Of a stretch of DNA of 63,447 nucleotides, positions 21,397-61,283 are shown piece after piece (positions within the stretch are counted from its first letter, which is position 1; every line of letters begins with the position of its first letter). The stretch comes from Chitinophagaceae bacterium (GTDB lineage Bacteria > Bacteroidota > Bacteroidia > Chitinophagales > Chitinophagaceae): NCBI GenBank assembly GCA_947447825.1, contig CANFLL010000011.1, forward strand, positions 1-63,447. Direction: 5' to 3'. Made by a program: the position numbers and the translations under genes. Under the pieces are notes generated by a model. The model had not been told where the DNA came from, did no database searches, and was given only the letters and a program-made list of their open reading frames with translations.

Positions 21397-21597
21397 TCTA
21401 GCCTCCAAGAAGTTACCTCTAGCCTCCAAGAAGTCACTTCTAGCCTCCGAAAAGTTACCTCTAACCTCCGAAAAGTTACTTCTAACCTCCGAAAAGTCAT
21501 CTCTAGCCTCCAAGAAGTCACTTCTAGCCTCCAAGAAGTCATCTCTAGCCTCCAAGAAGTAGTCTCTAGCCGACAAATTGTTACCTCTAGCCTTCTA
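21397..21597. repeat. 21-bp tandem repeat array A (about 9.5 units)
   Basis: Nine units of exactly 21 bp, each starting TCTARCCTCCRARAAGT, run from 21397 to 21585, and a decayed tenth unit follows. Within units the last four to five bases vary (TACC, CACT, CATC, AGTC) and two central positions switch together between CAAG and CGAA. There are no indels. Because 21 is a multiple of three, several frames are open across it and spell heptads such as LEARSDF on the minus strand. I see no start or ribosome site that would make these real genes. It ends 73 bases before the unknown gene at 21671. Confidence 0.93.
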
Positions 21598-21670
21598 ATG
21601 ATAAAAAATAGCCCATCTCTTACAAGGGTTCTACATAGTATTATTTTTTCACAGTTTAAATTTTACGATT

Positions 21671-22354
21671 ATGTCAGTTTATTTTATTGAAGGAAATGTG
21701 TCTGCTTTTAGTACACAGCTTACCAAGTTTTCGGTTAAATTACCAACTTATGCCGCCGATTTGGGGTTTTCTGTTGATGAGAAAAAAGAAGCTGTTGACG
21801 ATGCCGCCTATATGGCGTGGATTGTGAAAACGGATGAAGATTCGGCTACCAGTAAGCTAGCATGGAAGGCTTACGAATTGTTGGCAAGGGAAGGTTCTGT
21901 GGATGTGACGGTGTTGATTCCGCCTGGCGCATTTGTAATTACTGTTTCGCCAACACTTGTGGAGCCAGGTATTCAGCGCCGTTTTGCTGAAAAAGCAGCA
22001 AAGGCGAAGGCAAACCCGAAATGCTCGGAAGCCATCCAGAAAGATTTAGGCATCTACTCTGCACCAGATGCGGCGGTTACGATTACCCCCGATTTGAAGG
22101 TGGCTTCACAGGCGGGTCATCCAGAGCTCATTTTTACTAAACATGGTTTCTTGGTCATTAATCTGTATCGCGATGCTGGTACTGGTTATGGCACTGCTCC
22201 GTATAAAACATTGACGAAAAGCCATTTTGTAGACTACGATTTGCCAGCAGTAGGCGTTACGGCTCATTATAAATACAAGATAGTTTTTGTGGAAAATGAT
22301 GTAGAAGTAGGCAATTTTAGCTCCGAAGTAAGCATTAATGTGATAGGGCGATAA
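21671..22354 (+). CDS. Unrecognised 227-residue protein behind array A
   Basis: The protein has no signal peptide. The first half is probably helical (FSVKLPTYAADLGFSVDEKKEAVDDAAYMAWIV, then KLAWKAYELLAREG), followed by a proline-rich connector. The C-terminal 90 residues read like one fibronectin-III-type beta domain (PELIFTKHGFLVINLYRDAG ... YKYKIVFVENDVEVGNFSSEVSINV). I do not recognise a family. The only comparable gene in the window is at 41427-42080: similar length, a similar helical half with the block AxW(I/V)V, a C-terminal domain ending GN(F/W)S..xSxNV, and also behind a 21-bp array. A terminator follows at 22391. Confidence 0.75.
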   Translation: MSVYFIEGNVSAFSTQLTKFSVKLPTYAADLGFSVDEKKEAVDDAAYMAWIVKTDEDSATSKLAWKAYELLAREGSVDVTVLIPPGAFVITVSPTLVEPGIQRRFAEKAAKAKANPKCSEAIQKDLGIYSAPDAAVTITPDLKVASQAGHPELIFTKHGFLVINLYRDAGTGYGTAPYKTLTKSHFVDYDLPAVGVTAHYKYKIVFVENDVEVGNFSSEVSINVIGR

Positions 22355-22390
22355 TTAGTTACTAGTGATTATTTGTTAGGTGTTAGATAG

Positions 22391-22433
22391 AAAAAAGTCC
22401 CTTGAAGTGATTGCTTCAAGGGACTTTTTATTT
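22391..22433 (+). terminator. Intrinsic terminator
   Basis: AAAAAAGTCCCTTGAAG pairs with CTTCAAGGGACTTTTTA around a 6-base loop. The A and T runs on both sides would allow it to act in either direction. It ends the gene at 21671-22354. Confidence 0.88.
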
Positions 22434-22578
22434 AATGGACCTACGCTATACCTTTTTTGAAAAGCAGGATAATGTTTATTGGTCACTAGTTAAAACGAAT
22501 AAAACACATTCGTGTTTGTTAATTGAATCAGAGGCAACTCAATTCGCTTTATTTGTGCAAAAACTGCGGCGTAATTTT

Positions 22579-22890
22579 TTAATACACCAAATCTTCGTAT
22601 GCAGCTTGCAATTCATTATAGGCATGATTATCCTTTGCTTTTTTAGCTGCTGCCATACCCTTTTCGTACCATTCAATGGCAAGGTCTCTGTGGGTTAGTT
22701 TCTCTAAAAGTTTTGCCAGATGATAATATGAGCCTACATAATCTGGACTCTCCGTTAGTATTTCTTCAAATAAAATCCTTGCTTTAAAGTCGTCACCAAT
22801 CTTAATGTATTCCAATGCCAAAGCATGCCTAAGAAAATTGTCTTTTGGTGAAGCCTTCAAAAACTCATTCAACTTTTCTATCCTATCCAT
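22579..22890 (-). CDS. TPR-type protein, short
   Basis: The 103-residue protein consists of about two and a half tetratricopeptide-like helical hairpins (NFLRHALALEYIKIGDDFKARILFEEILTESPDYVGSYYHLAKLLEKLTHRDLAIEWYEKGMAAA). There is no signal peptide or membrane segment, so it should be a cytoplasmic adaptor. It stands alone and faces the previous gene. Partners are unknown. The frame on the opposite strand here is judged a shadow. Confidence 0.78.
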   Translation of the reverse strand: MDRIEKLNEFLKASPKDNFLRHALALEYIKIGDDFKARILFEEILTESPDYVGSYYHLAKLLEKLTHRDLAIEWYEKGMAAAKKAKDNHAYNELQAAYEDLVY

Positions 22891-23078
22891 AATAAATTAT
22901 TGCCACAAAGAAACAGCATAGGAAGTTAAAAGTAATAGGTAATAAGTAAAAAAGACACTGCACTGCAATGCAAGTTTCTCTATTTATTTTTGCTAGATTC
23001 CAATGATGTAAGAAAAGAAAGTAGAAATATAGTTTGCAAAAAGTAATAACACGCCTAAATTTGGTTACAATTTATTTT

Positions 23079-23276
23079 ATGCAAGGAAGAATAATAAATA
23101 TTGACCCGGAAATACTAGGAGGCACTCCCGTATTTTATGGAACGAGGGTGCCTATTAAAAATCTTTTTGATTATTTGGAAAGCGGCGATTCAATAGAAAT
23201 ATTTTTAGACGATTTTGATGGTGTTACCAAAAGCCAAGTAATAAAACTTATAGAATACACACAATTTAAAAAATGA
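23079..23276 (+). CDS. DUF433 (VapB-like) protein, orphan antitoxin
   Basis: This 65-residue protein carries RIINIDPEILGGTPVFYGTRVPIKNLFDYLESG followed by a short helix-turn-helix-like tail, the signature of DUF433. These proteins are usually antitoxins encoded before a PIN-like DUF5615 toxin. Here the next gene, overlapping by four bases (ATGA), is instead an LprI-like secreted protein, so the toxin is missing. The ATG at 23079 opens exactly at the conserved region; 15 extra residues from 23034 have no support. Confidence 0.82.
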   Translation: MQGRIINIDPEILGGTPVFYGTRVPIKNLFDYLESGDSIEIFLDDFDGVTKSQVIKLIEYTQFKK

Positions 23277-23683
23277 ATACAAAAAAATTTATTTTACTCT
23301 TATTGTTTGGCTTGTCATCTCTCAATTTGTTTTCTCAAACAAAAAAATCACTTGAAATAATTGAGAAAAAATACCAAGATAAACTAGATACAGGAAACGA
23401 TATGTATGGTTCTACAATTATTTATTACAATCAAATGGACAGTATGCTAAATGTTGTTTACAGAATGGCTAAATTAAAATTGAATACAAATCGGGCTTCC
23501 ATCCTAAAAGCACAACAATTAAAGTGGCTAAAGCAAAGAGACAATTATTTTAAAACAGTCGATAAAGAACAGAATGAAAGTGGACTTAATTCAATAGATA
23601 ATAAAATGACTAAACTCCATGAAAAAGCGGCATTTATAAATGATAGAATCCTTACAATATTAAAAACATACCAGTTAAATTAA
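23273..23683 (+). CDS. Secreted LprI/DUF1311-like protein
   Basis: The 136-residue product begins with a signal peptide (FILLLLFGLSSLNLFSQ). It then contains QMDSMLNVVYRMAKLKLNTN and ILKAQQLKWLKQRDNYF, the paired helices characteristic of the DUF1311/LprI fold (lysozyme-inhibitor-like). The usual conserved cysteines of the family are absent, so inhibition of lysozyme should not be assumed. Its ATG overlaps the stop of the DUF433 gene, an unusual pairing that suggests coupling after a rearrangement. Confidence 0.68.
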   Translation: MNTKKFILLLLFGLSSLNLFSQTKKSLEIIEKKYQDKLDTGNDMYGSTIIYYNQMDSMLNVVYRMAKLKLNTNRASILKAQQLKWLKQRDNYFKTVDKEQNESGLNSIDNKMTKLHEKAAFINDRILTILKTYQLN

Positions 23684-23762
23684 TCCCTACAAGTTGTCTT
23701 GCGTACTCTTTTCCTCTTTGCCTATCTCCTACTTCCCTTTTCTTTGTGGCTCAACTTAATAT

Positions 23763-24887
23763 ATGGCAGGCATCTACATTCACATACCCTTTTGCAGGAA
23801 AGCCTGCCACTATTGCAACTTTCATTTTTCCACAACGCATAGTCTGCTGCCACAAATGGTGGATAGTATTGTGCAGGAAATTAAGCTTAGGAAAAACTAC
23901 TTGTCATCCTCCGTTTCCACTATCTATTTTGGTGGTGGTACGCCTAGCATCTGTAGTAATATGCAATTATCTTCTTTACTTGATGAACTAAAATCGGCTT
24001 TCCATCTCGCCCCTTATGTAGAAATGACGCTCGAAGCCAACCCCGATGATATCACTGCCGAGAAACTTTCTCATTGGAAATCTATTGGCATCAATAGGCT
24101 AAGTATTGGGGTGCAGTCTTTTAGAGAAGAAGATTTACAATGGATGAATCGTGCACACAATGCCACTCAGGCCACCGATGCCATCCAGTTGGCCAAGCAG
24201 TATGGGTTCAATAACATTAGCATAGATCTAATTTATGGAACACCTACTTTATCAGATGAACAATGGCAGCAAAATGTGCAAACGGCCATCAATTTGCAAG
24301 TGCCGCACCTTAGTTGTTATGCGCTAACAGTGGAATCTAGGACGGCTTTGGACAAGATGATTGAGCGAAAAAAGATGCAGGCACCCGACCCAGAAAAGCA
24401 AGCCCGCCATTTTGAATTGCTGATGCAGTGGATGGAAGCCGCTGGCTACGAACACTACGAGATAAGCAATTTTGCCAAGCCCAACATGCGCAGTAAACAC
24501 AATAGCAGCTACTGGCAAGGCGAACATTATGTGGGTTTGGGACCAGCAGCGCACTCGTTTAATGGACTTAGCCGCCAATGGAACTTGGCTAATAATGCCT
24601 TGTACATAAAGAATATTGCCGAGGGAATAGTGCCTTTTGAAATGGAAACACTTACGCCCACTCAAGCATTGAACGAATACATCATGACGAGCCTTAGAAC
24701 AAGCGAAGGCTTATCTTTTACCTATTTAAAGGAAAATTGGGGCGAACAGAAAGTAATGGATATAAGGAAGAATGCTGCTGATTTTATACTGCAAGGCAAT
24801 GCATTGATTATTGATGAACACTTACAACTAACCAAAAAGGGTAAATTATTGGCGGATGGCATTGCTGCCGATTTGTTTTTTGAATAG
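23763..24887 (+). CDS. hemW: Radical-SAM heme chaperone HemW
   Basis: HemW delivers heme to target proteins and resembles oxygen-independent coproporphyrinogen oxidase. The 374-residue protein starts with GIYIHIPFCRKACHYCNFHF, the CxxxCxxC iron-sulfur site, then FGGGTPS for S-adenosylmethionine and the Glu motif LEANPDD. The C-terminal HNSSYW motif followed by GLGPAAHSF is typical of HemW. True HemN has a longer N-terminus and CxxxCxxCxC; the fourth cysteine is absent here, supporting HemW. The start follows the stop of the LprI-like gene by 79 bases. Confidence 0.92.
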   Translation: MAGIYIHIPFCRKACHYCNFHFSTTHSLLPQMVDSIVQEIKLRKNYLSSSVSTIYFGGGTPSICSNMQLSSLLDELKSAFHLAPYVEMTLEANPDDITAEKLSHWKSIGINRLSIGVQSFREEDLQWMNRAHNATQATDAIQLAKQYGFNNISIDLIYGTPTLSDEQWQQNVQTAINLQVPHLSCYALTVESRTALDKMIERKKMQAPDPEKQARHFELLMQWMEAAGYEHYEISNFAKPNMRSKHNSSYWQGEHYVGLGPAAHSFNGLSRQWNLANNALYIKNIAEGIVPFEMETLTPTQALNEYIMTSLRTSEGLSFTYLKENWGEQKVMDIRKNAADFILQGNALIIDEHLQLTKKGKLLADGIAADLFFE

Positions 24888-24901
24888 AATCAGAGATGAT
24901 A

Positions 24902-25465
24902 CTAAAAATGGTACATCACCAGTATCATTCCTACTGAACCAACATTTATTCTGAAATATTGTGTTCTTTTTTGAGATTCGAAAGTAGTTGGATTGTATTC
25001 ATAAAATTGATAGAAGTTGAGGTTCTCTTCTGTTAAAATGGATACATGCTTGTTAAAATAGTATTCTACTCCTAATAATGGACTGACACCAATTCTGGTA
25101 GACGTAGATGGATTGGCGGTAGATTTAAAGTAAGAGAAAGACAAATCAACGCCATGATATAAATTCCATCTTTCGGTGGTTCTGTTTTTTTGAATGCCTA
25201 ATCGAATATCAGGGTAATATCCCGCAGCATTACCATTGCTTACATCCAAATTTATTCCCAATCTTACCGTCTTCCTTTTTTTTAAATTATATCTAAAATT
25301 TAATAAGCACGACTCGGGCTTTTTCTGTAAAAATGTTAACACATTAACTACATCAACTCCTGATGAAATATTTTTCAAAATAGAGTCCGCAATAACTTGG
25401 GAATAAATCTGGTTTGCAAGAAGCAAATTAAAAAATATAAAAAATATTATTTTCCTTTTATACAT
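24902..25465 (-). CDS. Secreted barrel-like protein, unknown
   Basis: The 187-residue protein has a signal peptide (IIFFIFFNLLLANQIYSQ) and a body of alternating strands (TVRLGINLDVSN, YHGVDLSFSYFKS, SPLLGVEYYFNKHVSI, QYFRINVGSVGMILVMYHF), ending in Phe as outer-membrane barrels do. The family is not recognised. It follows the lipoprotein gene at 25493-26584 on the same strand by 27 bases and probably shares its transcript. Confidence 0.68.
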   Translation of the reverse strand: MYKRKIIFFIFFNLLLANQIYSQVIADSILKNISSGVDVVNVLTFLQKKPESCLLNFRYNLKKRKTVRLGINLDVSNGNAAGYYPDIRLGIQKNRTTERWNLYHGVDLSFSYFKSTANPSTSTRIGVSPLLGVEYYFNKHVSILTEENLNFYQFYEYNPTTFESQKRTQYFRINVGSVGMILVMYHF

Positions 25466-25492
25466 TCAATTGATAGATTGATAACTTTTAAA

Positions 25493-28498: not shown

Positions 28499-29896
28499 TT
28501 AAATTTCTCCAACCATCTCCACAGGAACAACCCATGCGTCAAACTCTTCGGCAGTAAGGTAGCCAAGCTTTATAGCTGTTTCTTTTAGTGTACTGTGATT
28601 TTTGTGTGCTGTTTGAGCAATTTCTGCCGCTTTGTAATAACCAATTTTGGTGTTTAGTGCAGTAACAAGCATCAAACTATTGTCAACGTGCTTTTTAATA
28701 TTTGCTTCTAAGGGTGCAATACCAACAGCACATTTATCATTAAAGCTCACACAACCATCGCCAATTAAACGAGCACTATGCAAGAAATTATAAATCATTA
28801 CTGGTTTAAATACATTCAACTCAAAGTGTCCCAAACTTCCTCCAATGTTTATAGCTACATCATTACCCAAAACTTGTGCAGCAATCATTGTTAAAGCTTC
28901 ACATTGAGTAGGATTTACTTTACCCGGCATAATAGAAGATCCTGGTTCATTATCAGGAATAAACAATTCACCAATTCCACTTCTTGGCCCACTACTCAAC
29001 ATGCGCACATCATTTGCAATTTTCATTAAGCTAGCAGCAACTGTTTTCAAAGCACCATGCGATTCAACAATTGCATCATGAGCAGCTAAAGCTTCAAACT
29101 TATTTTCGGCAGTAATGAACGGCAATCCAGTTAAATTAGCAATGTGTTTTGCAACATTTTCAGAATATCCTTTTGGCGTGTTAATCCCTGTTCCTACGGC
29201 AGTTCCTCCCAAAGCAAGCTCGCTTAAATGTTCAAGTGTGTTTTTAATAGCTTTTAAACCATGGTTCAATTGGCTTACATATCCACTTAGTTCTTGCCCA
29301 ACAGTAAGTGGAGTTGCATCCATAAAGTGAGTACGACCAATTTTAACTACGTGCATAAACTCTTTGCTTTTTGCTTGTAGTGTGTCTCGAAGTTTTTCTA
29401 TACCAGGAATGGTTACTTCTGTCAAAATTTTGTAAGCCGCAATGTGCATGGCTGTAGGAAAAGTGTCATTACTAGATTGAGACTTATTAACGTCATCATT
29501 TGGGTGAATGAATTTTTCTTTATCTGTTAGTGCGCCACCTTTAATTACATGAGCACGATAAGCAACAACTTCGTTCACATTCATATTGCTCTGTGTGCCG
29601 CTACCTGTTTGCCAAACCACCAATGGGAAACAATCGTCCAATTTACCTTCCAAAATCTCATCGCAAACCTGGCCAATTAGGTCACTTTTTTCTTGGCTCA
29701 AAACACCCGCATCAAGGTTGGTTAGTGCAGCAGCTTTTTTAAGGTATGCAAAAGCCTTTATAATTTCTTTTGGCATACGATTAATGTCTTGGGCAATCTT
29801 AAAATTCTCGATAGAACGTTGTGTTTGCGCACCCCATAACGCATTAATAGGCACTTTCACTTCACCCATTGTATCTTTTTCAATTCTAAATTCCAT
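28499..29896 (-). CDS. fumC: Fumarate hydratase, class II
   Basis: FumC interconverts fumarate and malate in the TCA cycle. The 465-residue protein is full length, with the superfamily signature [19 protein letters not shown], the substrate block [27 protein letters not shown] and the catalytic region [14 protein letters not shown]. Residues are conserved throughout, so class II fumarase is preferred over aspartase. It is transcribed alone on the minus strand; array B lies about 370 bases upstream of its start. Confidence 0.95.
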
Positions 29897-30269
29897 AACT
29901 TTTGTTTTATTATTATTTATTTTTATTTCGGTCGCAAAAGTAGGAGTCTAAAGGGTGTTTTTTTATGAGTAACATCAAAGTTTTTGCGCTGAAATGAAAC
30001 TCGGTCTGGAGTTTAAACAACGAAAATGATTTAGTAGAATGAATAAAAGAATTTAAAGCCTTCATTTTAGCAATACATTTACTTCTACTTTGACAGATTA
30101 AAACGATTGTTATCCCTCAGGAGCTCTACCGCTAATTTCATGAGTAAAAGCGATAAAGTTTTATGCACCCGCTCCAACTCTCTTAAAGTTCTAAACTTTC
30201 TCGAAGCTTATCCCAAACACGCAGCTTGTCAAAATGAGTACTTTCTTTTGTCCTCTATCTTCCATTTAT
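29897..30269. other. Region upstream of fumC, no genes
   Basis: I see no coding frame or hairpin in these 373 bases. The fumC promoter must lie in it. Array B begins at 30270. Confidence 0.45.
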
Positions 30270-30468
30270 TCAACTGAGTCACACTTAAATTCACTTGAGT
30301 CAGCCAAAGATTCACCTGAGTCAGAAAAAGATTCACCTGAGTCAGAAAAAGATTCACCTGAGTCAGTCGACGACTCACTTGAGTCAGACAAAGATTCAGT
30401 TGAACGAGTCGACGACTCACCTGAGTCAGCCAAGGACTCACCTGAGTCGTGGACTGACTCAAGTGAAT
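30270..30468. repeat. 21-bp tandem repeat array B (about 9.5 units)
   Basis: Nine full units of exactly 21 bp run from 30270 to 30458 and a decayed tenth follows. The constant core is TCACCTGAGTCA, with TCANNTGA present in every unit; the remaining nine bases vary among sets such as GAAAAAGAT, GTCGACGAC and GCCAAAGAT. There are no indels. Heptads such as LTQVNLF can be read on the minus strand, but no translation start is credible. The same core recurs in array C 12 kb away. Confidence 0.93.
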
Positions 30469-30801
30469 AAATGACGTTTTTTGATGCTAAAATTGCTAAA
30501 TCAATTGATGTATTCATTGACAGCAAAGGATTTTAAAGGTTTTATAGATTATACTCAACAGAATTTGGTTTGCGAAATGAGAGAAGCTTCCTTCTTTTGA
30601 AATCAAAGGAATTAATCATTTCTTTCGGTCAAATCAATTATCACAAGTGTATCTAACCTCAATATTTTGTTCTTACAATACATGGGTTTGCCTGTTGAAA
30701 TAAAGATTTTAATAAAAAACGAATGCTTAACTTCAAAATATTACACACAAACATTATGAAATCTAACCTGTCAAAGTAGAATTACTTAATCTCAACTTAA
30801 T
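30469..30801. other. Non-coding stretch after array B
   Basis: These 333 bases contain no gene that I can support. The methyltransferase gene ends at 30802. Confidence 0.45.
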
Positions 30802-38156: not shown

Positions 38157-40193
38157 CACCCAAGCTTCGTTTTCTTTCAATAAATTTATCAATTCATCTA
38201 CCGCAATGCCACTATCTATGTTTTTCTTCACCACTTCCTTGCCTTTGTATAGGGTAATCTTACCAACGCCACTGCCTACATAACCAAAGTCGGCATCAGC
38301 CATTTCGCCAGGACCATTCACAATGCAACCCATAATGGCAATCTTCACGCCTTTCAAATGATTGGTAACGCTTCGTATTTTGGCAGTGGTTTCTTGCAAA
38401 TCGAACAATGTTCTGCCGCAACTAGGACAACTGATATATTCTGTTTTAGAGATACGCACCCTCGTTGCTTGAAGGATGGTAAACGCCGTAGAATTTATAA
38501 ACTGTTCGGGCGAAGTATTACTGGTATAAGTTCTACCCTCCGTGTTCTGTAAACCAGCAGCCTGTAGCCTGTAAGCTTCTTCACTCATTCCCAAGCAAAT
38601 ACCATCTCCAAAACCATCCAATAACAAAGCACCAGCTTCTGTAGCATAATGAATCAAATGTTCATCGGCAGTTTGCCAATTGCTACCCACAATTAGGATT
38701 ACAGGGTTTTCAATGCCATTATCCTTCAACTCCATTACCATACGGCGCACACTTTGCATGGCATTTTTATTGGTAGAAGATAGACATAGCACAGCAGTCT
38801 TATCAGTCTTTATCTTGGCTAATAAACTTTCCAATGAAGGTTGACTAACATTCTCTGAGAAACAATCAATCATCACAAAGTTTAGTTCTGATGATTTCTC
38901 AATGCTTGCATCCAGGTATTTATTACCATCGTAAATCGGGAAGAGCTTGGTTTTATCCTCAGCATTTTGCCAAGTAGCATAATTACTTATCACCTTCAAT
39001 GTACCCGGCAAAGCAAAATCCACTGTTTTATCAGCAGTAAAAATATAATCCGCCGCACCATCACTGATGTTCCATTTATCGCTTACTTCATTATAAGTAT
39101 AACCCACACTTTGCAAACTTTCTGGGGTAATAGTTTCCAGTTTACTAAGGTCTGCAACTACCACTGGCACATGATGCCCACCAATATTGTCAATAGCAAA
39201 AGTCTTTCTTCTAGAATAAGAAAATGGGTTGTAAGGAACCTTCTCAATAAGAGGAACCAAGTTACTGGTTGCTGGTTGCTGGTTACTGGTAACTGGTAAC
39301 CTGTAACCTGTATCTGTATAACGTTTCACCAAATCCCTACAAACTGGTATTTCCAATTCAGGATCTTCGGTTAAGCTTACACGTATCGTATCGCCAATAC
39401 CATCTTCTAATAATGTTCCAATACCAACTGCACTCTTCACACGTCCATCTTCACCATCACCCGCTTCGGTAACGCCCAAATGCAAGGGATAACTTTCTCC
39501 AAACTCCGCATCCATCTGTTCAATCAACAATCTATAAGCCTGCACCATCACCTGCGTATTACTTGCCTTCATACTTAGGATGATGTTATGATAACTCTCG
39601 CCGCGAGCAATCCGTAAAAACTCCATTGCACTTTCCACCATGCCCATCGGCGTATCGCCATATCGGCTCATAATTCGGTCGCTTAAGCTTCCGTGATTGG
39701 TACCAATGCGCATGGCAGTGCCATATTCCCTACAAATCTTCACCAACGGCGTAAACCTTTCCCGTATTCTATCAATCTCCTCAGCATATTCCGCATCGGT
39801 ATAATCTATTTGTTCAAACTTCTTTTTATCAACGTAATTACCTGGGTTCACCCGCACTTTCTCTACAATTCTGGCAGCTATTTCGGCAGCGTTTGGCGTA
39901 AAATGAATATCGGCAATCAAAGGCGTATTGTAACCACGCTTGCGCAGTTCATTCTTTATATTCAATAAGTTCTCCGCTTCCTTTTTACTAGGGGCAGTAA
40001 TGCGCACCAACTCCGAGCCCGCTTCTATGCAACGAATGGTTTGCTCCACTGTTGCCAATGTATCCATCGTGTCGGTGGTGGTCATTGTTTGCACACGAAT
40101 GGGGTGACCATTGCCAAGCAACAGATCGCCAATTTTTACTTCTTTCGTAATTAAACGGTTGTATTCGGTAAGAGAATTACAATAAAGCTGCAT
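38133..40193 (-). CDS. ispG: 4-hydroxy-3-methylbut-2-enyl diphosphate synthase, long form
   Basis: IspG makes HMBPP in the MEP isoprenoid pathway. The 686-residue protein is the long three-domain form: an N-terminal TIM barrel (RVQTMTTTDTMDTLATVEQ ... ADIHFTPNAAEIAARIVEKVRVNPGN), a middle domain of about 270 residues, and the C-terminal iron-sulfur domain with CPSCGRTLF and the later CIVNGPGEMADADFGYVG. Residues 293-312 (YRLPVTSNQQPATSN) are encoded by a palindromic repeat that also occurs outside genes; see the entry at 39258. The C-terminus EEEGKRG also runs into a repeat. It is transcribed in the same direction as nadB. Confidence 0.95.
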   Translation of the reverse strand: MQLYCNSLTEYNRLITKEVKIGDLLLGNGHPIRVQTMTTTDTMDTLATVEQTIRCIEAGSELVRITAPSKKEAENLLNIKNELRKRGYNTPLIADIHFTPNAAEIAARIVEKVRVNPGNYVDKKKFEQIDYTDAEYAEEIDRIRERFTPLVKICREYGTAMRIGTNHGSLSDRIMSRYGDTPMGMVESAMEFLRIARGESYHNIILSMKASNTQVMVQAYRLLIEQMDAEFGESYPLHLGVTEAGDGEDGRVKSAVGIGTLLEDGIGDTIRVSLTEDPELEIPVCRDLVKRYTDTGYRLPVTSNQQPATSNLVPLIEKVPYNPFSYSRRKTFAIDNIGGHHVPVVVADLSKLETITPESLQSVGYTYNEVSDKWNISDGAADYIFTADKTVDFALPGTLKVISNYATWQNAEDKTKLFPIYDGNKYLDASIEKSSELNFVMIDCFSENVSQPSLESLLAKIKTDKTAVLCLSSTNKNAMQSVRRMVMELKDNGIENPVILIVGSNWQTADEHLIHYATEAGALLLDGFGDGICLGMSEEAYRLQAAGLQNTEGRTYTSNTSPEQFINSTAFTILQATRVRISKTEYISCPSCGRTLFDLQETTAKIRSVTNHLKGVKIAIMGCIVNGPGEMADADFGYVGSGVGKITLYKGKEVVKKNIDSGIAVDELINLLKENEAWVEEEGKRG
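39258..39315. repeat. Palindromic repeat captured inside ispG
   Basis: This 58-bp stretch of GGTTACTGG / AACTGGTAACC words starts CAAGTTACTGGTTGCT and ends TAACCTGTATCT. The same start and end words bound the intergenic repeat at 57842-57892. It lies within the linker after the TIM barrel of IspG and keeps the frame open. Confidence 0.7.
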
Positions 40194-41426: not shown

Positions 41427-42080
41427 CTATGCTTGCACATTAGCCGAAAACACAGGGCTCCAATTGCCTTTTTCGTTGCGGCTATTCACCCAGCGTATCC
41501 AGTAATACACTAATTTTCCAGCATCTGCTCCCAAAAAATTAGTAGCAAAAACTGCATTACTTGTGGCACCAATGTACATTAATTCACTCGCTTCCACAGG
41601 TGTAGTGCCGCCTATTTTTTGCCACACTTCGCAAGCACTTGTGCCGTGCGGATGGGCATGTTTGTTAGATACACTGTCCAAAAGGGTTATCACATGATGC
41701 AATCTTGCTCCACCATTTACCTGCCCAATCGGTGTACTTACAGGCATCGGAACATGCGGATGCGAACCACCCACTACCGGAATATTGAAAGTATCCCTAT
41801 CTACAGCCGTTAACACACTATCAGGCATATCGGCATAAATGCCCCTCAAAATCACCTTCATTTTCGCTTCCACCAAATCTTTTGTAGCCACATTGGTATG
41901 TGTTTGGGTGGCGGCTGTGGTGGCCAATGGATAATCAACAACCCATAGGGCGTACTCATCTGTCAACAATGTTTTATTGGCAGGCGTAATTAATAGACGC
42001 GCAAAATTTAGTCCAATATAAGCTACTACTACTTGAAAATACAGACTCAATGTTGCTTCTTTATCTGAAAAATGTGCCAT
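41427..42080 (-). CDS. Unrecognised 217-residue protein behind array C
   Basis: The protein lacks a signal peptide. Its first half is probably helical (FQVVVAYIGLNFARLLI; TDEYALWVVDYPLATTAATQTHTNVATKDLVEAKMKVILRGIYADMP). A histidine-rich stretch follows (GGSHPHVPMP, NKHAHPHG), and the end reads like one beta-sandwich domain (VYYWIRWVNSRNEKGNWSPVFSANV). The layout parallels the protein at 21671-22354, and both lie just downstream of a 21-bp repeat array. Array C starts 123 bases before this gene. The family is unknown to me. The histidines could bind metal, which is only a suggestion. Confidence 0.74.
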   Translation of the reverse strand: MAHFSDKEATLSLYFQVVVAYIGLNFARLLITPANKTLLTDEYALWVVDYPLATTAATQTHTNVATKDLVEAKMKVILRGIYADMPDSVLTAVDRDTFNIPVVGGSHPHVPMPVSTPIGQVNGGARLHHVITLLDSVSNKHAHPHGTSACEVWQKIGGTTPVEASELMYIGATSNAVFATNFLGADAGKLVYYWIRWVNSRNEKGNWSPVFSANVQA

Positions 42081-42202
42081 TATTTAGTTGATTTAATTGT
42101 TTATAAACAGGCTTCGCAATTGTAGCTAACCTCTGAAATCCTTTTGCATAAAGCATTGTAGCTTTTTAACCCTCATTTCTATCTCCCAAAACACCCAATA
42201 AT

Positions 42203-42391
42203 TCACGTGAGCGGAAGATAAGTTCACCTGAGTCATGACGTGACTCAGGTGAGTCAGCGTATGACTCACTTGAGCCGTGTCATGACTCAAGCTTGTTACA
42301 CCATGACTCAGTTGAACTTATCTTCCGCTCACCTGAGTCGCATCACGACTCAAGTGAGTCATGAGCTGACTCAGGTGAGGGATTTGCCCAA
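42203..42391. repeat. 21-bp tandem repeat array C (about 9 units)
   Basis: Eight full units of 21 bp plus a partial ninth share the core TCANNTGA followed by GTC. The central NN takes complementary values in different units (CC and GG, CT and AG), as though some units were flipped. Variable segments include ATGACGTGAC and GCATCACGAC. There are no indels apart from one degenerate unit at 42287. It is related by its core to array B. Heptads such as MTQVSQR are readable on the plus strand but I do not regard them as a gene. Confidence 0.9.
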
Positions 42392-42957: not shown

Positions 42958-43539
42958 TTATTTAAACAATAGCTTATAAATATCCATTTGATCGATGGAA
43001 ATCATCTCACCAGGCTGTAACGCATCGAGGGATAGATTCTCCATTCGATGCCTTACCAATCGCAAAGTAGGATACCCAACCGATGCCGTCATCTTGCGGA
43101 CTTGCCTGTTTTTTCCTTCTTTCAAAATTAGTTGTAGCCACGGCGCAGGTATCTCTTTTCGAAAACGAATGGGCGGGTTTCTATCTGGCACAACGGGCGG
43201 TTTGGCAAAAAGCATTGCCTTACATGGTTTGGTGCGGTATTGTTTGCCATCAATATTTATGGAAGTTCCTTTTTGCAATTTTGCAACGGCTTCGGGTGTT
43301 ATGGCCCCATCTACCTGCACCCAATATTCTCTTTCATGGGCAAACAGCGGATTCAGCAGCCGATTATTCAACTGTTTATCATTGGTTAAAATTAATAAAC
43401 CCTCACTATCATAGTCTAATCTTCCCACCGGATAAACGTCTTTAGGTACATCAAAATAGTCGGCAAGAGTCTGCTTTCCCTCCATCGCCGAAAATTGCGA
43501 AAGCACCAAATAGGGTTTGTAGATGATGAAATAATCCAT
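42958..43539 (-). CDS. Pseudouridine synthase, RluE/RsuA type
   Basis: The enzyme isomerises a specific uridine of rRNA. The 193-residue protein lacks an S4 domain and is the short RluE-like form. It starts MDYFIIYKPYLVLSQ, carries the catalytic aspartate in PVGRLDYDSEGLLILTND, and ends with the RsuA-family signature LILKEGKNRQVRKMTASVGYPTLRLVR. Substrate position is not predictable with certainty; 23S rRNA (RluE) is favoured by the length. It is followed by a palindromic repeat. Confidence 0.88.
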   Translation of the reverse strand: MDYFIIYKPYLVLSQFSAMEGKQTLADYFDVPKDVYPVGRLDYDSEGLLILTNDKQLNNRLLNPLFAHEREYWVQVDGAITPEAVAKLQKGTSINIDGKQYRTKPCKAMLFAKPPVVPDRNPPIRFRKEIPAPWLQLILKEGKNRQVRKMTASVGYPTLRLVRHRMENLSLDALQPGEMISIDQMDIYKLLFK

Positions 43540-43551
43540 TATAATGGTTGG

Positions 43552-43618
43552 TTATTAGTTGTTAGTTATTAGTGGTTAGAGGCAGTCTAACAACTAACCA
43601 CTAATAACTAACAACTAA
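43552..43618. repeat. Strong palindrome of TTAGTGG/CCACTAA words
   Basis: TTAGTTGTTAGTTATTAGTG and the following GTTAG at 43556-43579 pair almost perfectly with CTAACAACTAACCACTAATA onwards at 43587-43618 across a 7-base loop. The right arm includes the TAG stop codon of the dismutase gene (43615-43617), so the repeat touches coding sequence. Confidence 0.75.
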
Positions 43619-57020: not shown

Positions 57021-57079
57021 CGTATTACCGTTTACCGTCAACCGAAGTTCCCGCACGGTTAACGGTAAACGGTAATACG
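57021..57079. repeat. Strong palindrome between convergent genes
   Basis: Arms of 24 bp at 57021-57044 and 57056-57079 pair with one G-U wobble; the words TACCGTTTACCGT and ACGGTAAACGGTA make up most of them, with an 11-base loop. It is the cleanest member of the word-like palindrome class and lies between mgsA and the nucleotidyltransferase, where it could terminate both. Confidence 0.82.
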
Positions 57080-57086
57080 GTAAACC

Positions 57087-57821
57087 TCAAAAAAACAGCC
57101 CCTTTGCTTTCACAATGCTTTCTGGTTTGCCTACATCTATCAATAAACTATCCGAATGATTGAAGCCTTCAATGGTGTGGTTGCAGCAAAGACTCATATA
57201 AACATCTATCAAAGAAAACTTTCCTTGTTGTTCAATTAGGTTGAATATTTTGGTATTAATAACGTGAATACCACTAAACGCTTTTGCCACTAAGGCTAGT
57301 TTCTGCGTTTCGGTATAACTAAGTACTGCCCCTTTTTCTTCTTGCGTAGCCGTATTTTTCCAGCCACATAGTTTATTAGTGGCATCAAAAAGTAAGTAAC
57401 GGCTACTAGTTCTGTCGGTAATGGCTAGCGTTGCCAATGGATTATTTTCCTCATGTTTCTGTATCATTTTGGTTAGGGGCAAAGTAGTTAGCATATCTAC
57501 ATTCATCACCACAAAACTCTCTTCTTTGTCAAAATACCAAGCTGCCTTTTGCAATCCTCCTCCGGTTTCTAGAACAGCATCCGTTTCATCGGAAATAGAA
57601 ATCTTACTCCCCCATCCATTATTTGTTTCTATGGCATTAATAATCTGATCCGGAAAATGGTGCACATTCACTATCAGTTCCGTAATGCCTTGTTGTTGCA
57701 GGTATTCCACATTTCTTTGAAGCAATGTTTTTCCATTCACCACTGCCAAAGCCTTTGGATGATGCAATGTAAAAGGTTGCAACCTCGTTCCTAATCCTGC
57801 TGCAAGAAGTAATGCTTTCAT
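57087..57821 (-). CDS. Nucleotidyltransferase, MurU-like
   Basis: The 244-residue protein has the nucleotidyltransferase start LLAAGLGTRLQPFTLHHPKALAVVNGKTLLQ, the ETGGGLQKAAW loop and the metal-binding aspartate in VVMNVDMLT, then SGIHVINTKIF. MurU-type enzymes form UDP-MurNAc from MurNAc-1-phosphate. The role is supported by the neighbour at 57897, an AmgK-like kinase, since amgK-murU pairs form a peptidoglycan recycling route. Sequence alone would also allow other sugar-1-phosphate nucleotidyltransferases. The two genes are 75 bases apart. Confidence 0.82.
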   Translation of the reverse strand: MKALLLAAGLGTRLQPFTLHHPKALAVVNGKTLLQRNVEYLQQQGITELIVNVHHFPDQIINAIETNNGWGSKISISDETDAVLETGGGLQKAAWYFDKEESFVVMNVDMLTTLPLTKMIQKHEENNPLATLAITDRTSSRYLLFDATNKLCGWKNTATQEEKGAVLSYTETQKLALVAKAFSGIHVINTKIFNLIEQQGKFSLIDVYMSLCCNHTIEGFNHSDSLLIDVGKPESIVKAKGLFF

Positions 57822-57841
57822 AAATTTAAGTTCAATGGTTT

Positions 57842-57892
57842 CAAGTTACTGGTTGCTAGTTACAGGTAACCAGAAACCAGTAACCTGTATCT
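57842..57892. repeat. Palindromic repeat, same family as the one inside ispG
   Basis: This 51-bp stretch begins CAAGTTACTGGTTGCT and ends TAACCTGTATCT, the same words that bound 39258-39315 inside ispG. Its inner part forms a hairpin of TACTGGTT and AACCAGTA. Confidence 0.7.
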
Positions 57893-57896
57893 TTCT

Positions 57897-59336
57897 TTAC
57901 CTCACCCAGTTCTCCTGATTCGTATGCGATAAAACTACTTTTACCTTGTATTTATTGCGCAGATGCCTTGCTGTTTGTTCTGCCGCATAAACGCTTCTAT
58001 GTTGACCGCCCGTACAGCCAAAGTTGATGGATAAATGTTCAAAATCACGCTCCAGATAATTCTCAATTGACACATCTATTAAGTCCCACACACTATTTAA
58101 AAATGTATTCATCTTTGTTCTTTGCTCCAAAAAGTCTTGCACAGGCTTATCTTCCCCACTCAGTTTCTTGTATTCATCAAACCTTCCTGGATTATAAATG
58201 GCACGCATATCAAACACATATCCCCCGCCCGATTCATTATCACACGCAGGAATACCCTTTCTGTAGCTAAAACTATTTATCACTACGGTCAATGGGGTAG
58301 TTTCAATTGCTTGGATTGGCGTAAACCTTTTTACAATTTCATCGCTAGTTATTTGTTGTAGCAATGCCTCAAACACAGGCATTTCCAATCCAATCGTTTT
58401 ATTGTTTACAAAGAATTGTACATTCTTTAGAGCCAATGGAATGCTTGTTAAAAAGTGTGCCTTCCGCTCAAATAATCCCCTGAAGCCATACGCACCAAGC
58501 ACTTGCAGCAAACGTATCAATACATATCCATTGTATTGGCTCACAAATGCCGGCCTATCCAGTTTCTTTTCCAGCAATGCCTCAACTTCATTCATGTAAT
58601 ATTCCAAGAGGCTATCTTTCCATTCGTTACTCAACTCTGCTTTTGCTTGCCAAAGCAGACTAGCCACATCATATTGCAACGCCCCTTTCATGCCGCCCTG
58701 ATAGTCTATAAAATAAACTTCCTCGTCTTTAATCAGGATATTACGCCCCTGAAAATCGCGAAACATAAAATACTGATGCGCTGTTTGTCCCAGATAATTG
58801 CCCAATATTTCAAACTCATCCAGCAAAGCTTGTTTGTCATAAGGGATGTGGAGGGTATCTAGAAAGTAGTATTTAAAATAAAGCAAATCGCTGATGATGG
58901 CTTGCTTACCAAAAGCTTTTGCTGTGAGGCACCAATTATAATCGAAGTTTCTATCGCCCAAAACCTGCATCCTTACCAGTTGTTGCAGGCTTTTTTTATA
59001 CAGGCCGTACACATAATCATCCTTTCCGTGCTGCGTTATCTTATCCAGCAAGCTTTCTGCCCCTTTGTCTTCCTGTATATAAATGGTGTGCTCCTCGTTT
59101 ATACAATACACGGTAGGCACGGGCAAACCGGCCGCAATAAAATGATTGGTGAAGCTAAAAAAAGCATTATTCTCCTTCACATTCAGGTTGTAAGTGGCAA
59201 TGTACGAAGCGGAGTTTGTGTAAATGCGGAAGTATTGCCTATCGCTACCACTTTGTGGCAGCATCTCCAAACGAGAGATGGTTTCGTGTTTATAACTGGT
59301 AAATAGTTGTTCAATAGCTGTTGTAATCAATTCCAT
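57897..59336 (-). CDS. AmgK-like sugar kinase fused to a RapZ C-terminal domain
   Basis: The 479-residue protein has two parts. Residues 1-335 are an aminoglycoside-phosphotransferase-fold kinase like AmgK, with SGSDRQYFRIY, a catalytic loop FMFRDFQGRNILIKDEEVYFIDYQGG (Asp and Asn kept, the usual His replaced by Phe) and a helical lobe. Residues 345-479 match the C-terminal domain of RapZ: VINSFSYRKGIP, YVFDMRAIYNPGRFDEYK, SINFGCTGGQHRSVYAAEQ. AmgK phosphorylates MurNAc/GlcNAc at C1; in E. coli RapZ this domain senses glucosamine-6-phosphate. The pairing with a MurU-like gene points to cell-wall recycling with built-in sensing, which is inference. Confidence 0.85.
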   Translation of the reverse strand: MELITTAIEQLFTSYKHETISRLEMLPQSGSDRQYFRIYTNSASYIATYNLNVKENNAFFSFTNHFIAAGLPVPTVYCINEEHTIYIQEDKGAESLLDKITQHGKDDYVYGLYKKSLQQLVRMQVLGDRNFDYNWCLTAKAFGKQAIISDLLYFKYYFLDTLHIPYDKQALLDEFEILGNYLGQTAHQYFMFRDFQGRNILIKDEEVYFIDYQGGMKGALQYDVASLLWQAKAELSNEWKDSLLEYYMNEVEALLEKKLDRPAFVSQYNGYVLIRLLQVLGAYGFRGLFERKAHFLTSIPLALKNVQFFVNNKTIGLEMPVFEALLQQITSDEIVKRFTPIQAIETTPLTVVINSFSYRKGIPACDNESGGGYVFDMRAIYNPGRFDEYKKLSGEDKPVQDFLEQRTKMNTFLNSVWDLIDVSIENYLERDFEHLSINFGCTGGQHRSVYAAEQTARHLRNKYKVKVVLSHTNQENWVR

Positions 59337-59477
59337 TCGTCTGTTTAATTTAAAAAAACGAAAGTAACCCTATCTGATTATTGTTTTTGCATTATGGAGA
59401 ATATGTGGGGAAAGTGGAGGGGAAGTTTTTATTGGTATCAGGCTTGGAGAGTAAATTTCTAATTAGTGAATAGCTTA

Positions 59478-59801
59478 TTATTTTTTCAAATAAACCATAA
59501 TCAAACCAACGGTAACTGCTACTTGTCCTATCCAAAAGATAAACATCCACTTAATCATTTCAGATTTTGTCTCTACTATTTTAACCTCTAAGCTAGCTAT
59601 ATCTTTTTTGGTTGCAAATAAATTGTGCATTTCGTTTCTTAATATTTCCATGTCTTTATTTTGCAACGATTGGTATGATTGTCCTTTTTCCTCTATAACT
59701 TCTTTGGCTTTTACTTCAAAGTATTCAATTACAGTAGCAGCTTCTTGCTCTGAGAACTTCGATTTGAATATTTCATAAACCTTTAATTCCAGAGTACTCA
59801 T
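59478..59801 (-). CDS. Coiled-coil membrane protein, DUF1640-like
   Basis: The 107-residue protein is helical, with a central coiled coil (NKDMEILRNEMHNLFATKKDIASLEVKIVETKSEMIKW) and one C-terminal transmembrane helix (MFIFWIGQVAVTVGLIMVYL). This layout is that of DUF1640/CCDC90-type small proteins, usually of unknown function. It is a single gene on the minus strand. Confidence in the family is moderate, in the topology good. Confidence 0.72.
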   Translation of the reverse strand: MSTLELKVYEIFKSKFSEQEAATVIEYFEVKAKEVIEEKGQSYQSLQNKDMEILRNEMHNLFATKKDIASLEVKIVETKSEMIKWMFIFWIGQVAVTVGLIMVYLKK

Positions 59802-59939
59802 ATATTTCTATTTGAAACGAAACTAACCATTTTTATTTATAAGTGTTTTTTAAATACTAAGTTAAGATCAATAGTCAGCAAAATATCAAAGCTATTTAAC
59901 TACAATCCACAGTTTTTGCCATGGAATTCTTACGCCCAT

Positions 59940-60287
59940 TCAATTCGTGACAATTGGATCAAATTCTATAATTCCTTTACTTGGCATTCTTTCAAACACC
60001 CATTTTAAATCCGAACAAATTGTATCTAAATTACATGATACTCCTTTCGTCCCAGAAAGACCCCAACAACCAGTAGGATAAGCTGTGTAAGATTTAATTT
60101 TTGCCCATGAAAAACTAGTCCGCAATCTTGTTAGTTTTAATAAATCCTCTTGGCTTATAATAATAGTACTCGAATCTGAGAATGGTCGATCATCAAAAGT
60201 TAGTTTACAATCTTTTAGAGTTAATTCTTGAGAAGAAGATTTCAATGATATAATGAGGAATAATAGTAGATAAACAAGGTATTTCAT
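59940..60287 (-). CDS. Small secreted protein, unknown
   Basis: The 115-residue protein has a signal peptide (YLVYLLLFLIISLKSSSQ) and a mature part of about 95 residues with three cysteines (TGCWGLSG, VSCNLDTICSD and one near LKDCKLTF). No family is recognised. It stands alone between two other small envelope genes on the same strand. Confidence 0.65.
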   Translation of the reverse strand: MKYLVYLLLFLIISLKSSSQELTLKDCKLTFDDRPFSDSSTIIISQEDLLKLTRLRTSFSWAKIKSYTAYPTGCWGLSGTKGVSCNLDTICSDLKWVFERMPSKGIIEFDPIVTN

Positions 60288-60405
60288 GTTGAGTGTTTAA
60301 AATGTTAGACTTTGCTTGAAGTTAATTTAATATCTACCGTCAATCAATTTTTTCTTCCTTAAAAATAAATACAATCAACCCAAATAACACCCCACTTCCT
60401 TCCCA

Positions 60406-60437
60406 AACCCTTCTAGGATTTCAAATCCTTCTGGGTT
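60406..60437. repeat. REP-like hairpin, copy 1
   Basis: AACCC and GGGTT form the outer stem and AGGATTT / AAATCCT the inner stem around a single-base loop. Two further copies lie at 60946-60977 and 61276-61305. This one is just after the stop of the gene at 60448. Confidence 0.72.
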
Positions 60438-60447
60438 GTACAAAAAT

Positions 60448-60873
60448 TTATTTCTTATCTAAATCCCAATAATCAAATCTACCAACCCCTAATCTATCCT
60501 CATCCTTATTCATGTAAACAATAAAAGCATCACCACCAGTTTCGTAATGCCAATCGCCAACCTCTAATATTTTCGAACTATCCTTTACTTCATAAGTATT
60601 TCCTTCCTTTAAGGTTAACGTACAATACTTACAATTGGGATAATGTTTTAAATGATAGGAGCCAACATATTCTAATTGTTGTTTCTTGTACCCATCTTTC
60701 ATGCTCTTAAAGTAAAGAATAAAAAGTACTCCCGAAATTATAGAGACTAACAGATGAATAATCTTTTTTTTCTCAACAAAAAGAAATGCCAGTAGGTATA
60801 TAATTGCACCAAAACCAAGAGCAAAATATATAAAATAAATAAAAAGCTCTGTAAATGCGCTTGAATTACCCAT
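60448..60873 (-). CDS. Small inner-membrane protein, unknown
   Basis: The 141-residue protein has two hydrophobic segments (TELFIYFIYFALGFGAIIYLLAFLFV and IIHLLVSIISGVLFILYF) and a C-terminal beta-like domain with CKYCTLTLKEGNTYEVKDSSKILEVGDWHYETGG. The start is put at the ATG 60873, as the extra 27 residues from 60954 run into a REP-like repeat. I do not recognise a family. Confidence 0.65.
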   Translation of the reverse strand: MGNSSAFTELFIYFIYFALGFGAIIYLLAFLFVEKKKIIHLLVSIISGVLFILYFKSMKDGYKKQQLEYVGSYHLKHYPNCKYCTLTLKEGNTYEVKDSSKILEVGDWHYETGGDAFIVYMNKDEDRLGVGRFDYWDLDKK

Positions 60874-60945
60874 ACCTAATTTTTTTATTATTCCTCTAAT
60901 TTCTTCACCCACAAATCTACTTTCTTTCGCTATACTACCCCCGCA

Positions 60946-60977
60946 AACCCTCATAGAATTTCAAATCCTTTTGGGTT
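60946..60977. repeat. REP-like hairpin, copy 2
   Basis: This is the same hairpin as at 60406, with AACCC / GGGTT outer arms and a TCAAATCCTTTTGGG core. It lies at the left edge of the region holding array D. Confidence 0.7.
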
Positions 60978-61052
60978 GTTCATCGCAAAACTGCCCTTTT
61001 GCACAAATAAACAGATAAGTCGGGTTATAAAAGGGATACAGTATGCGACAGA

Positions 61053-61283
61053 AGTTCAAACTTATGCCACGGAAGTTCAAGCTTTTGTCACGAAAGTTCA
61101 AGCTTTTGTCACGGAAGTTCAAGCTTTTGCGACGGAAGTTCAAGCTTATGTCACAGAAGTTCAAGCTTTTGCGGCGGAAGTTCAAGCTTTTGTCACGGAA
61201 GTTCAAGCTTTTGCGACGAAAGTTCAAGCTTTTGCGACGGAAGTTTAAACTTATACGATAAAAGTTCAAACTTTTGCCCTGAA
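61053..61283. repeat. 21-bp tandem repeat array D (11 units)
   Basis: Eleven units of exactly 21 bp share AGTTCAARCTTWTG; the last seven bases vary (TCACGGA, CGACGGA, CCACGGA, TCACAGA). The two outermost units on the right are more decayed. There are no indels. Heptads such as KFKLLSR are readable on the plus strand and SLNFRRK on the minus strand, but no start is credible. REP-like hairpins flank the array on both sides, and it lies between divergent genes. Confidence 0.93.

What the first reader, a model, noticed from the sequence alone, without database searches (positions are those of the whole stretch)
21397..61283. Four arrays, one period, all 5' of genes
Seen: arrays A, B, C and D have the same 21-bp period, 8 to 11 units, no indels, a constant 12-17 bp part and a variable remainder, and each lies 5' of at least one gene; none lies between two convergent genes. 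Because 21 is a multiple of three they look like heptad-repeat genes in several frames, so databases may hide them as hypothetical proteins.
Basis: partly seen in the sequence, partly recalled or inferred. Interest (0 to 1): 0.8.

Follow-up and report, generated by a model that had tools for sequence, protein, structure and literature searches.

The report
Genome-wide 21-base phased repeat arrays
A group of little-known bacteria carries between its genes an estimated few hundred short repeat arrays with many different sequences but mostly the same step of 21 bases or a multiple of it (two turns of the DNA helix), which suggests rows of protein-docking sites, one family of them inside what looks like a small jumping element.

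Summary
The window holds four 21-bp arrays (A-D). In 463 kb of this genome, 31 arrays pass a TRF cut-off with period 21 or 41-43 (about 300 per genome by extrapolation). Ten of 12 sister genomes show such arrays in the parts seen; 85 loci from elsewhere (1.43 Mb) gave one. 34 of 42 periods lie at 21, 41-43 or 81-85, which fits helical turns (2, 4, 8) better than codons. Array C has stops in all six frames.

"5' of genes" is not informative: 4 of 24 classifiable arrays lie between convergent genes, as spacer frequencies predict. Array B is the middle of a ~706-bp element with terminal inverted repeats at about 40 loci, a MITE-like carrier of a minisatellite, like Porphyromonas BrickBuilt. A, C and D show no such ends.

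Best functional evidence: array C has 9 units here and 9 in a sister genome, in the same register to the conserved flank; the TCANNTGA core is 93% identical, the 7-bp spacers 29%. Arms do not covary overall, which speaks against RNA hairpins. I favour helically phased rows of dimer-binding sites; the binding protein is unknown, and neutral minisatellite spread is a serious rival.

The parts
21397..21593 (+). Array A, ~9.4 units of TCTAGCCTCCAAGAAGTCACC
   Evidence: related arrays at C112, C5 and C59 of the same genome; C112 is a 722-bp duplicate at 91%
21671..22354 (+). 227-aa ORF of no Pfam family just downstream of array A
30079..30784 (.). Dispersed ~706-bp element containing array B (about 40 loci in the genome)
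30083..30100 (+). Left terminal inverted repeat TTCTACTTTGACAGATTA
30764..30781 (-). Right terminal inverted repeat TTCTACTTTGACAGGTTA (read on - strand)
30268..30448 (.). Array B, ~8.6 units, GACTCANNTGAGTC-like dyad units with core TCANNTGA
28499..29896 (-). Fumarase class II gene; array B lies upstream of it
42200..42388 (.). Array C, 9 units with core TCANNTGA; a 9-unit array stands in the same place in sister genome G003
41427..42080 (-). 217-aa ORF of no Pfam family downstream of array C; three homologues at 80-83% in two sister genomes also have a TCANNTGA array just upstream
42958..43539 (-). RNA pseudouridine synthase gene on the other side of array C, syntenic marker
61044..61278 (+). 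Array D, ~11.2 units of TGCCACGGAAGTTCAAGCTTT, between divergent ORFs
   Evidence: a related array at C35 shares the array only

Best explanation
These are intergenic minisatellites built on a 21-bp quantum, that is two turns of B-DNA. Inferred mechanism: each unit is a binding site about the size of a protein dimer, so that about 9 (4-13) dimers bind side by side on one face of the helix and form a nucleoprotein cluster of roughly 80-280 bp; different array families would have different unit specificities. Shown here: the 21/42/84 spacing, its occurrence in most genomes held of one genus, the many different units, the conserved core with drifted spacers and equal unit number at orthologous array C, and the carriage of one family (B) by a MITE-like element. 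Not shown: any binding protein, any effect on transcription, or how new arrays arise.
For: Periods in 463 kb of the own genome (42 TRF clusters): 21 x16, 41-43 x15, 81/84/85 x3, 7 x3, 51 x1, 153 x4 (the 51-bp cluster and at least one 153-bp cluster lie in long ORFs). Sisters (31 clusters): 21 x9, 40-43 x11, 63 x1, 82-84 x3, and 7 of period 7, 9 or 14. Periods 41, 43 and 85 are multiples of neither 3 nor 7 but fit 4 or 8 turns. Array C versus G003: 9 and 9 units, same distance to a conserved flank, core identity 0.93, spacer 0.29; within the own array core 0.89, spacer 0.25. 15 of 50 array consensus units are self-complementary at z>2 against shuffles. Unit numbers of orthologous arrays differ by a whole unit (9 and 10). 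Arms pair no more than within-array shuffles predict (812 of 1104 pairs against 821.5), as expected for two half-sites read separately by a protein rather than a stem.
Against: No binding protein was identified. The units of A, B and D are not self-complementary beyond z 2 (1.44, 1.16, -0.73), and a first, local dyad test reached p<0.05 in only 6 of 50. The core/spacer pattern is significant alone only in C. One core position does show a pairing excess (147 pairs against 139.8, 10 of 1000 shuffles reach it). Placement follows spacer frequency. TCANNTGA arrays sit beside very different genes, and five of six G003 stretches lie between neighbours on the same strand, so no regulon emerges. The core/spacer contrast is strong in one locus pair; two other pairs show 0.82-0.83 against 0.60-0.65 and a fourth, nearly identical pair shows none. 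Independent origin of the two 9-unit arrays cannot be excluded.
Confidence: 0.42

Rival explanations
1. Neutral or selfish minisatellites: slippage or template switching makes arrays in spacers, and MITEs trap and spread some of them, as proposed for BrickBuilt. Solitary arrays are relics or local expansions without function.
For: Array B is inside a ~706-bp element with terminal inverted repeats at about 40 loci whose leader and tail were not found in 713 kb from sister genomes. Placement follows spacer frequency. Array identity ranges widely, as if arrays are born and decay. Within-array spacer copies occur in direct and inverted orientation (47 and 18 of 529 pairs at >=11 of 13; chance not calibrated; several exact), as template switching at palindromes could give. 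The spacer upstream of fumarase has arrays in 5 of 13 genomes, all with different units.
Against: Neutral slippage does not obviously predict that 34 of 42 clusters fall near 21, 42 or 84, nor a core kept at 0.93 while spacers fall to 0.29 with equal unit number.
Confidence: 0.35
2. Only the periodicity matters: any sequence repeated every two turns adds up its bends, and arrays serve as sequence-independent curved DNA near genes.
For: Predicted curvature is higher in 31 arrays than in 147 array-free spacers (p 0.0045; wedge values recalled from memory). It would explain why units differ so much.
Against: Column-permuted arrays are equally curved (p 0.94), so curvature is a by-product of the period; it does not explain core conservation in C.
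Confidence: 0.1
3. RNA-level elements: arrays are transcribed and fold as rows of hairpins.
For: Many units are inverted repeats (15 of 50 at z>2); one arm position shows a small pairing excess.
Against: No overall arm-to-arm covariation in 184 units of 23 arrays; core arms are short with a 2-nt centre and AT-rich in G003; no Rfam match at gathering score in the window except a tRNA. I folded no array.
Confidence: 0.06
4. Heptad-repeat coding genes.
For: A, B and D have 3 open frames each; one frame is free of stops in all four A-type arrays read.
Against: Open frames are expected when a 7-codon unit lacks a stop; C has stops in all six frames; periods 40, 41, 43, 82, 83 and 85 break the frame; only 2 of 31 arrays lie in an ORF of at least 150 aa.
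Confidence: 0.04

Closest known systems
BrickBuilt MITE of Porphyromonas gingivalis (PMC4596501; abstract, outline, passages and section 5 read)
   Same: Intergenic tandem array inside a MITE with leader, tail and terminal inverted repeats; repeat units have conserved and non-conserved sites; 3 of 19 copies have neither leader nor tail; same phylum.
   Different: 23-nt unit, 19 copies, one family; here 21 bp, about 40 loci for B, plus many solitary array families with the same step in a whole genus. I did not compare the sequences.
464/MITEPgRS elements of P. gingivalis with 41-nt tandem repeats (described in PMC4596501, passages)
   Same: MITE with a ~41-nt array, close to the 41-43-bp class here; the same passages mention 22-nt repeats too.
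   Different: Reported there for one species; no genome-wide 21-bp class in the passages I saw.
REP / CGTC- and GTAG-tagged palindromes (PMC3733652, passages)
   Same: Short dispersed palindromes; CGTC type reported in Bacteroidetes; some clustered.
   Different: Described mainly as single elements or dimers, not rows of ~9 at a fixed 21-bp step; the tag is not a constant feature here by eye.
TAACTGA heptamer repeats (PMC4679880, passages)
   Same: Intergenic short tandem repeats, also in a few Bacteroidetes.
   Different: 7-bp units; resembles the separate 7-bp arrays in this window, not the 21-bp class.
Plasmid iterons (recalled)
   Same: Direct repeats of about two helical turns bound side by side by a protein.
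   Different: One array per replicon near a rep gene; here many, dispersed.

Membership tests
Minisatellite-bearing MITE (BrickBuilt-like), array B | Terminal inverted repeats at both ends | tested here: met
   TTCTACTTTGACANATTA: 29 + and 28 - matches at <=2 mismatches against 3 and 2 for the reversed pattern; 22 of 30 fetched loci have both ends 450-850 bp apart
Minisatellite-bearing MITE (BrickBuilt-like), array B | Many dispersed copies with common leader and tail | tested here: met
   About 40 loci at 74-94% identity (window copy aside), counted by hand; some at contig ends, so some may be halves of one copy
Minisatellite-bearing MITE (BrickBuilt-like), array B | No transposase gene inside | tested here: met
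   Longest complete ORF in 30079-30784 is 83 aa
Minisatellite-bearing MITE (BrickBuilt-like), array B | Target-site duplication | tested here: inconclusive
   The 4-mers beside the two ends are equal in 12 of 22 copies (shuffles mean 7.0, maximum 10), but they are mostly the palindrome TTAA and may belong to the inverted repeat
Minisatellite-bearing MITE (BrickBuilt-like), array B | Inverted repeats shared with an autonomous IS in the genome | tested here: inconclusive
   In the list I see no inwardly facing pair framing a transposase-sized segment; the draft has 187 contigs
Minisatellite-bearing MITE, arrays A, C, D | Terminal inverted repeats around the array | tested here: not met
   Best inverted match within 400 bp scores 9, 8 and 11; control pairs reach 16 even leaving aside four high ones that probably pair two B elements
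REP element | GTAG or CGTC tag beside each palindrome | tested here: inconclusive
   Not searched systematically; CGTC or GTCATT is seen outside some ends of TCANNTGA arrays
Heptad-coding gene | Open, conserved frame through the array | tested here: not met
   C has stops in all six frames; frame-breaking periods occur; A, B and D keep open frames
Operator array for a DNA-binding protein | A protein that binds the units | not testable with these tools
   No candidate identified

The most novel reading that the evidence does not exclude
A genus-specific chromatin-like or regulatory system: several hundred helically phased operator arrays per genome, with dozens of unit specificities, read by an expanded family of dimeric DNA-binding proteins that coevolve with their arrays, with MITEs spreading arrays to new sites.
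Probability: 0.2. Interest if true: 0.88.

Novelty: new variant of a known kind. Interest (0 to 1): 0.62.

Why it matters
Bacterial minisatellites are usually treated as slippage noise with varied periods (recalled). A genus in which many different arrays keep a two-turn step, and in which one orthologous array keeps its core and unit number while its spacers are randomised, makes it testable whether bacterial minisatellites can be selected protein-binding scaffolds. It also warns annotators: some arrays mimic heptad-repeat proteins, and the B element sits at several contig ends of this draft.

Tried and rejected
Promoter-position idea: tested against spacer background, no enrichment. RNA hairpins: no overall arm covariation; no Rfam match in the window except a tRNA. 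Curvature as the selected property: equal in column-permuted arrays. Coding. TIRs around non-B arrays: none above control. A shared array-linked gene family: the homologues of the gene beside C that I saw carry arrays upstream, but all three were reached through arrays or the syntenic locus, so this is biased; the one distant homologue of array A's gene has no array upstream. A first local dyad test was weak (6 of 50 at p<0.05, combined p 0.03); a whole-unit test gave 15 of 50 at z>2; both are reported. Between-genome spacer sharing (96 direct, 104 inverted of 9930 pairs) is about what conserved core-flanking bases would give by my rough estimate (no call) and was not used. One search used a pattern with a wrong 19-bp step; its zeros are ignored. 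A second dispersed element with a 42-bp array (four copies) has no TIR that I could see. Paper searches gave BrickBuilt as the nearest precedent and no paper on 21-bp arrays in Chitinophagaceae among the listings; that is only about this library and these terms.

Rows dropped and biases: the 24 classified arrays leave out 7 at stretch edges, 2 inside ORFs and 5 heptamer arrays, and two of the four convergent ones share a spacer, arrays within 450 bp of a stretch end, arrays below 4.5 copies or with indels, while C was added by hand; C is not in the 31 because TRF misses it. The 20 stretches of the 463-kb sample come from contigs that searches had not listed, so the sample is biased against B-type arrays. 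Gene calls behind searches come from a simple ORF caller of mine. One search, whose places were mostly chosen for arrays, gave 29 tandem, 18 divergent, 7 convergent, 10 edge, 1 inside.
Full report
WHAT IS THERE. The window is contig C11 of a 4.65-Mb draft genome in 187 contigs; its closest named relatives by fumarase are Chitinophagaceae MAGs. It holds three 21-bp arrays that TRF calls, A 21397-21593, B 30268-30448 and D 61044-61278, all with 0% indels, and a fourth, C, which TRF misses but which reads as nine units in register from 42200 to 42388. Neighbours: A follows a GAPDH gene (with a small ORF between) and precedes a 227-aa ORF of no Pfam family; B lies upstream of fumarase; C lies between an RNA pseudouridine synthase and a 217-aa ORF of no Pfam family; D lies between divergent ORFs of 168 and 139 aa.

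HOW COMMON. I used the window and 20 stretches of 20 kb of the own genome (13, 7), 463,447 bases. The stretches come from contigs not listed, so B-type arrays are under-represented. TRF at score 100 gives 42 clusters: period 21 x16, 41 x3, 42 x11, 43 x1, 81, 84 and 85 one each, 7 x3, 51 x1, 153 x4. The 31 arrays of period 21 or 41-43 cover 4,934 bp, median 149 bp, longest 279 bp; scaled by length this is about 310 per genome. A lag scan of base-shuffled copies of the window and 13 of the stretches gives none. Sister genomes of the genus (as grouped by the tool): 31 clusters in 487 kb, 21 x9, 40-43 x11, 63 x1, 82-84 x3 and seven of period 7, 9 or 14; 10 of 12 sister genomes have at least one array of 21 or 40-43 bp in the 24-49 kb seen of each, G005 and G008 none (part of that DNA was chosen for fumarase, pseudouridine synthase or transferase genes). 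Outside the 13 held genomes of the genus: 85 loci, 1.43 Mb (8 from other genera of the family, 77 whose genus I did not check), 11 clusters, one of period 42 (L014, a Chitinophagaceae MAG), others of 6, 7, 10, 18, 22, 23, 144, 172 and 195.

THE STEP. In the own sample 34 of 42 clusters have periods 21, 41-43 or 81-85; the rest are 7, 51 and 153, and the 51-bp cluster and at least one 153-bp cluster lie in long ORFs. The values 40, 41, 43, 82, 83 and 85 are multiples of neither 3 nor 7, so neither codons nor heptamers explain the step; whole even numbers of helical turns do. No 31-32 or 52-53 class passed the cut-off.

ARRAY B IS IN A MITE-LIKE ELEMENT. The pattern GACTCANNTGAGTC occurs 198 times per strand at <=1 mismatch against 3 for the reversed control. 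A 706-bp segment, window 30079-30784, recurs at about 40 loci, counted by hand, some at contig ends. Its ends are TTCTACTTTGACANATTA inverted repeats (29 and 28 matches against 3 and 2 for the control); 22 of 30 fetched loci have both ends 450-850 bp apart, the flanking 4-mers are equal in 12 of 22 (shuffles mean 7.0, maximum 10) but mostly TTAA, and the longest complete ORF inside is 83 aa. Its leader and tail have no match in 713 kb of sister DNA. By anatomy this is a minisatellite-bearing MITE; movement was not shown. A, C and D have no terminal inverted repeats above control. A-type arrays also occur at C112 (722-bp duplicate at 91%), C59 and C5; D-type at C35; apart from the C112 duplicate these share only the array.

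POSITION. With a simple ORF caller, 24 arrays could be classified: 11 tandem, 9 divergent, 4 convergent (two of these in one spacer); among 194 spacers of at least 100 bp, 126, 39 and 29. There is no depletion from convergent spacers (Fisher p 0.77; length-weighted 0.71). The window's 4-of-4 is therefore unremarkable.

SAME PLACES, DIFFERENT UNITS. Upstream of fumarase, 5 of 13 genomes of the genus have an array, each with a different unit, and the upstream genes differ. Beside the pseudouridine synthase, 5 of 12 genomes examined have one: G000, G003 and G004 with TCANNTGA cores, G006 and G011 with unrelated units (only 1.2-1.3 kb could be seen in G001 and G002, and G010 was not looked at). 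At the D locus no comparable array was found in the sister stretches read.

ARRAY C ACROSS SPECIES. In G003 the same two genes flank a nine-unit array in the same register to the conserved flank. Unit by unit against G000, the TCA..TGA core is 93% identical, the bases beside it 43%, the 7-bp spacer 29%; the flank next to the array aligns at 79% over 358 bp. G003 against G004 (nine units each): core 0.98, spacer 0.79. Two further orthologous pairs, with 9 and 10 or 10 and 9 units, show core 0.82-0.83 against spacer 0.60-0.65 when compared without allowing for the extra unit; a fourth pair is nearly identical throughout (0.98 and 0.99). So cores outlast spacers at the most diverged pair, and unit numbers differ by whole units. 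Seven of 12 sister genomes have this core in at least two consecutive units (G004 and G001, with 19 and 15 matches, also have 4 and 2 control matches). I read 20 such stretches: 14 have 8-11 units in register, the others 3-7; their neighbours are diverse.

DYADS, NOT STEMS. In 184 units of 23 arrays the two arms pair no more often than when arms are shuffled within arrays (812 of 1104 against 821.5); one position shows an excess (147 against 139.8, reached by 10 of 1000 shuffles). Two half-sites fixed separately, as for a dimeric protein, fit this better than a stem. Over all array families 15 of 50 consensus units are self-complementary at z>2 (5 of 25 with period 21, 10 of 25 with period 41-43); a stricter local test reached p<0.05 in 6 of 50. 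A, B and D are below z 2.

OTHER TESTS. Predicted curvature is raised in arrays but equally in column-permuted arrays. Conserved columns cluster along the unit in array C (p 0.002) and weakly overall (9 of 500, C included). Spacers within an array recur in direct and inverted orientation, for example an exact 13-bp inverted pair in array C, which points to copying through palindromes. Coding: C has stops in all six frames; A, B and D have three open frames, as expected for a stop-free 7-codon unit; 2 of 31 arrays lie in an ORF of at least 150 aa.

READING. I favour helically phased rows of dimer-sized binding sites. The spacing, the C comparison and the lack of overall arm coupling support it; the binding factor and any function are inferred. 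Neutral minisatellites spread by MITEs explain B, the placement and the unit diversity, and come close in weight. The nearest precedent is BrickBuilt and the 41-nt PgRS elements of Porphyromonas gingivalis, in the same phylum (PMC4596501; abstract, outline, passages and section 5). What differs here is the number of families, the spread through a genus and the narrow 21-bp quantum.

Noticed in passing
window 39240-39337, 43545-43618, 63235-63308: 7-bp tandem arrays (for example GTTACTG, GTTAGTT/CTAACAA, AGTGGAA), a separate class from the 21-bp arrays; heptamer arrays recur in sampled stretches of the genome.
   Followed up: partly
L155:3200-3921 and window 21207-21906: A 722-bp duplicate carries array A together with the first part of the 227-aa gene; in the copy only 79 residues align, at 97%.
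   Followed up: partly
L163:6350-6723, L310, L312, L313: A second dispersed element of up to ~375 bp with 42-bp phased inverted repeats (ATGTCGTACG...CGTACGACAT), four copies, no visible terminal inverted repeats.
   Followed up: partly
L289, L292, L293 (G003 TCANNTGA arrays): Some spacers repeat at a distance of four units (84 bp), a higher-order repeat that recalls the separate 81-85-bp arrays.
   Followed up: no
L292:4834-5487, L303:5269-5922, L253:698-1351: Three homologues (80-83%) of the 217-aa ORF beside array C have a TCANNTGA array about 70-115 bp upstream; they were reached through arrays or synteny, so this is biased.
   Followed up: partly
contigs C40, C134, C38, C79, C17 of the own genome: These contigs begin or end in or within 14 bases of a B-element copy, so the element probably breaks the assembly.
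   Followed up: no
L173:8658-16070: Three tandem paralogous large ORFs (846, 846 and 658 aa) with short 7-bp-based arrays between them.
   Followed up: no
window 115-1458: 447-aa ORF that looks like a transposase by its reading (my impression, not searched).
   Followed up: no
L014:4169-4448: The only 42-bp array in the 85 loci from outside the held genomes of the genus, in a Chitinophagaceae MAG.
   Followed up: no
L206 (G008 fumarase): The fumarase match of G008 has one TAA inside; it may be an assembly error or a broken gene.
   Followed up: no
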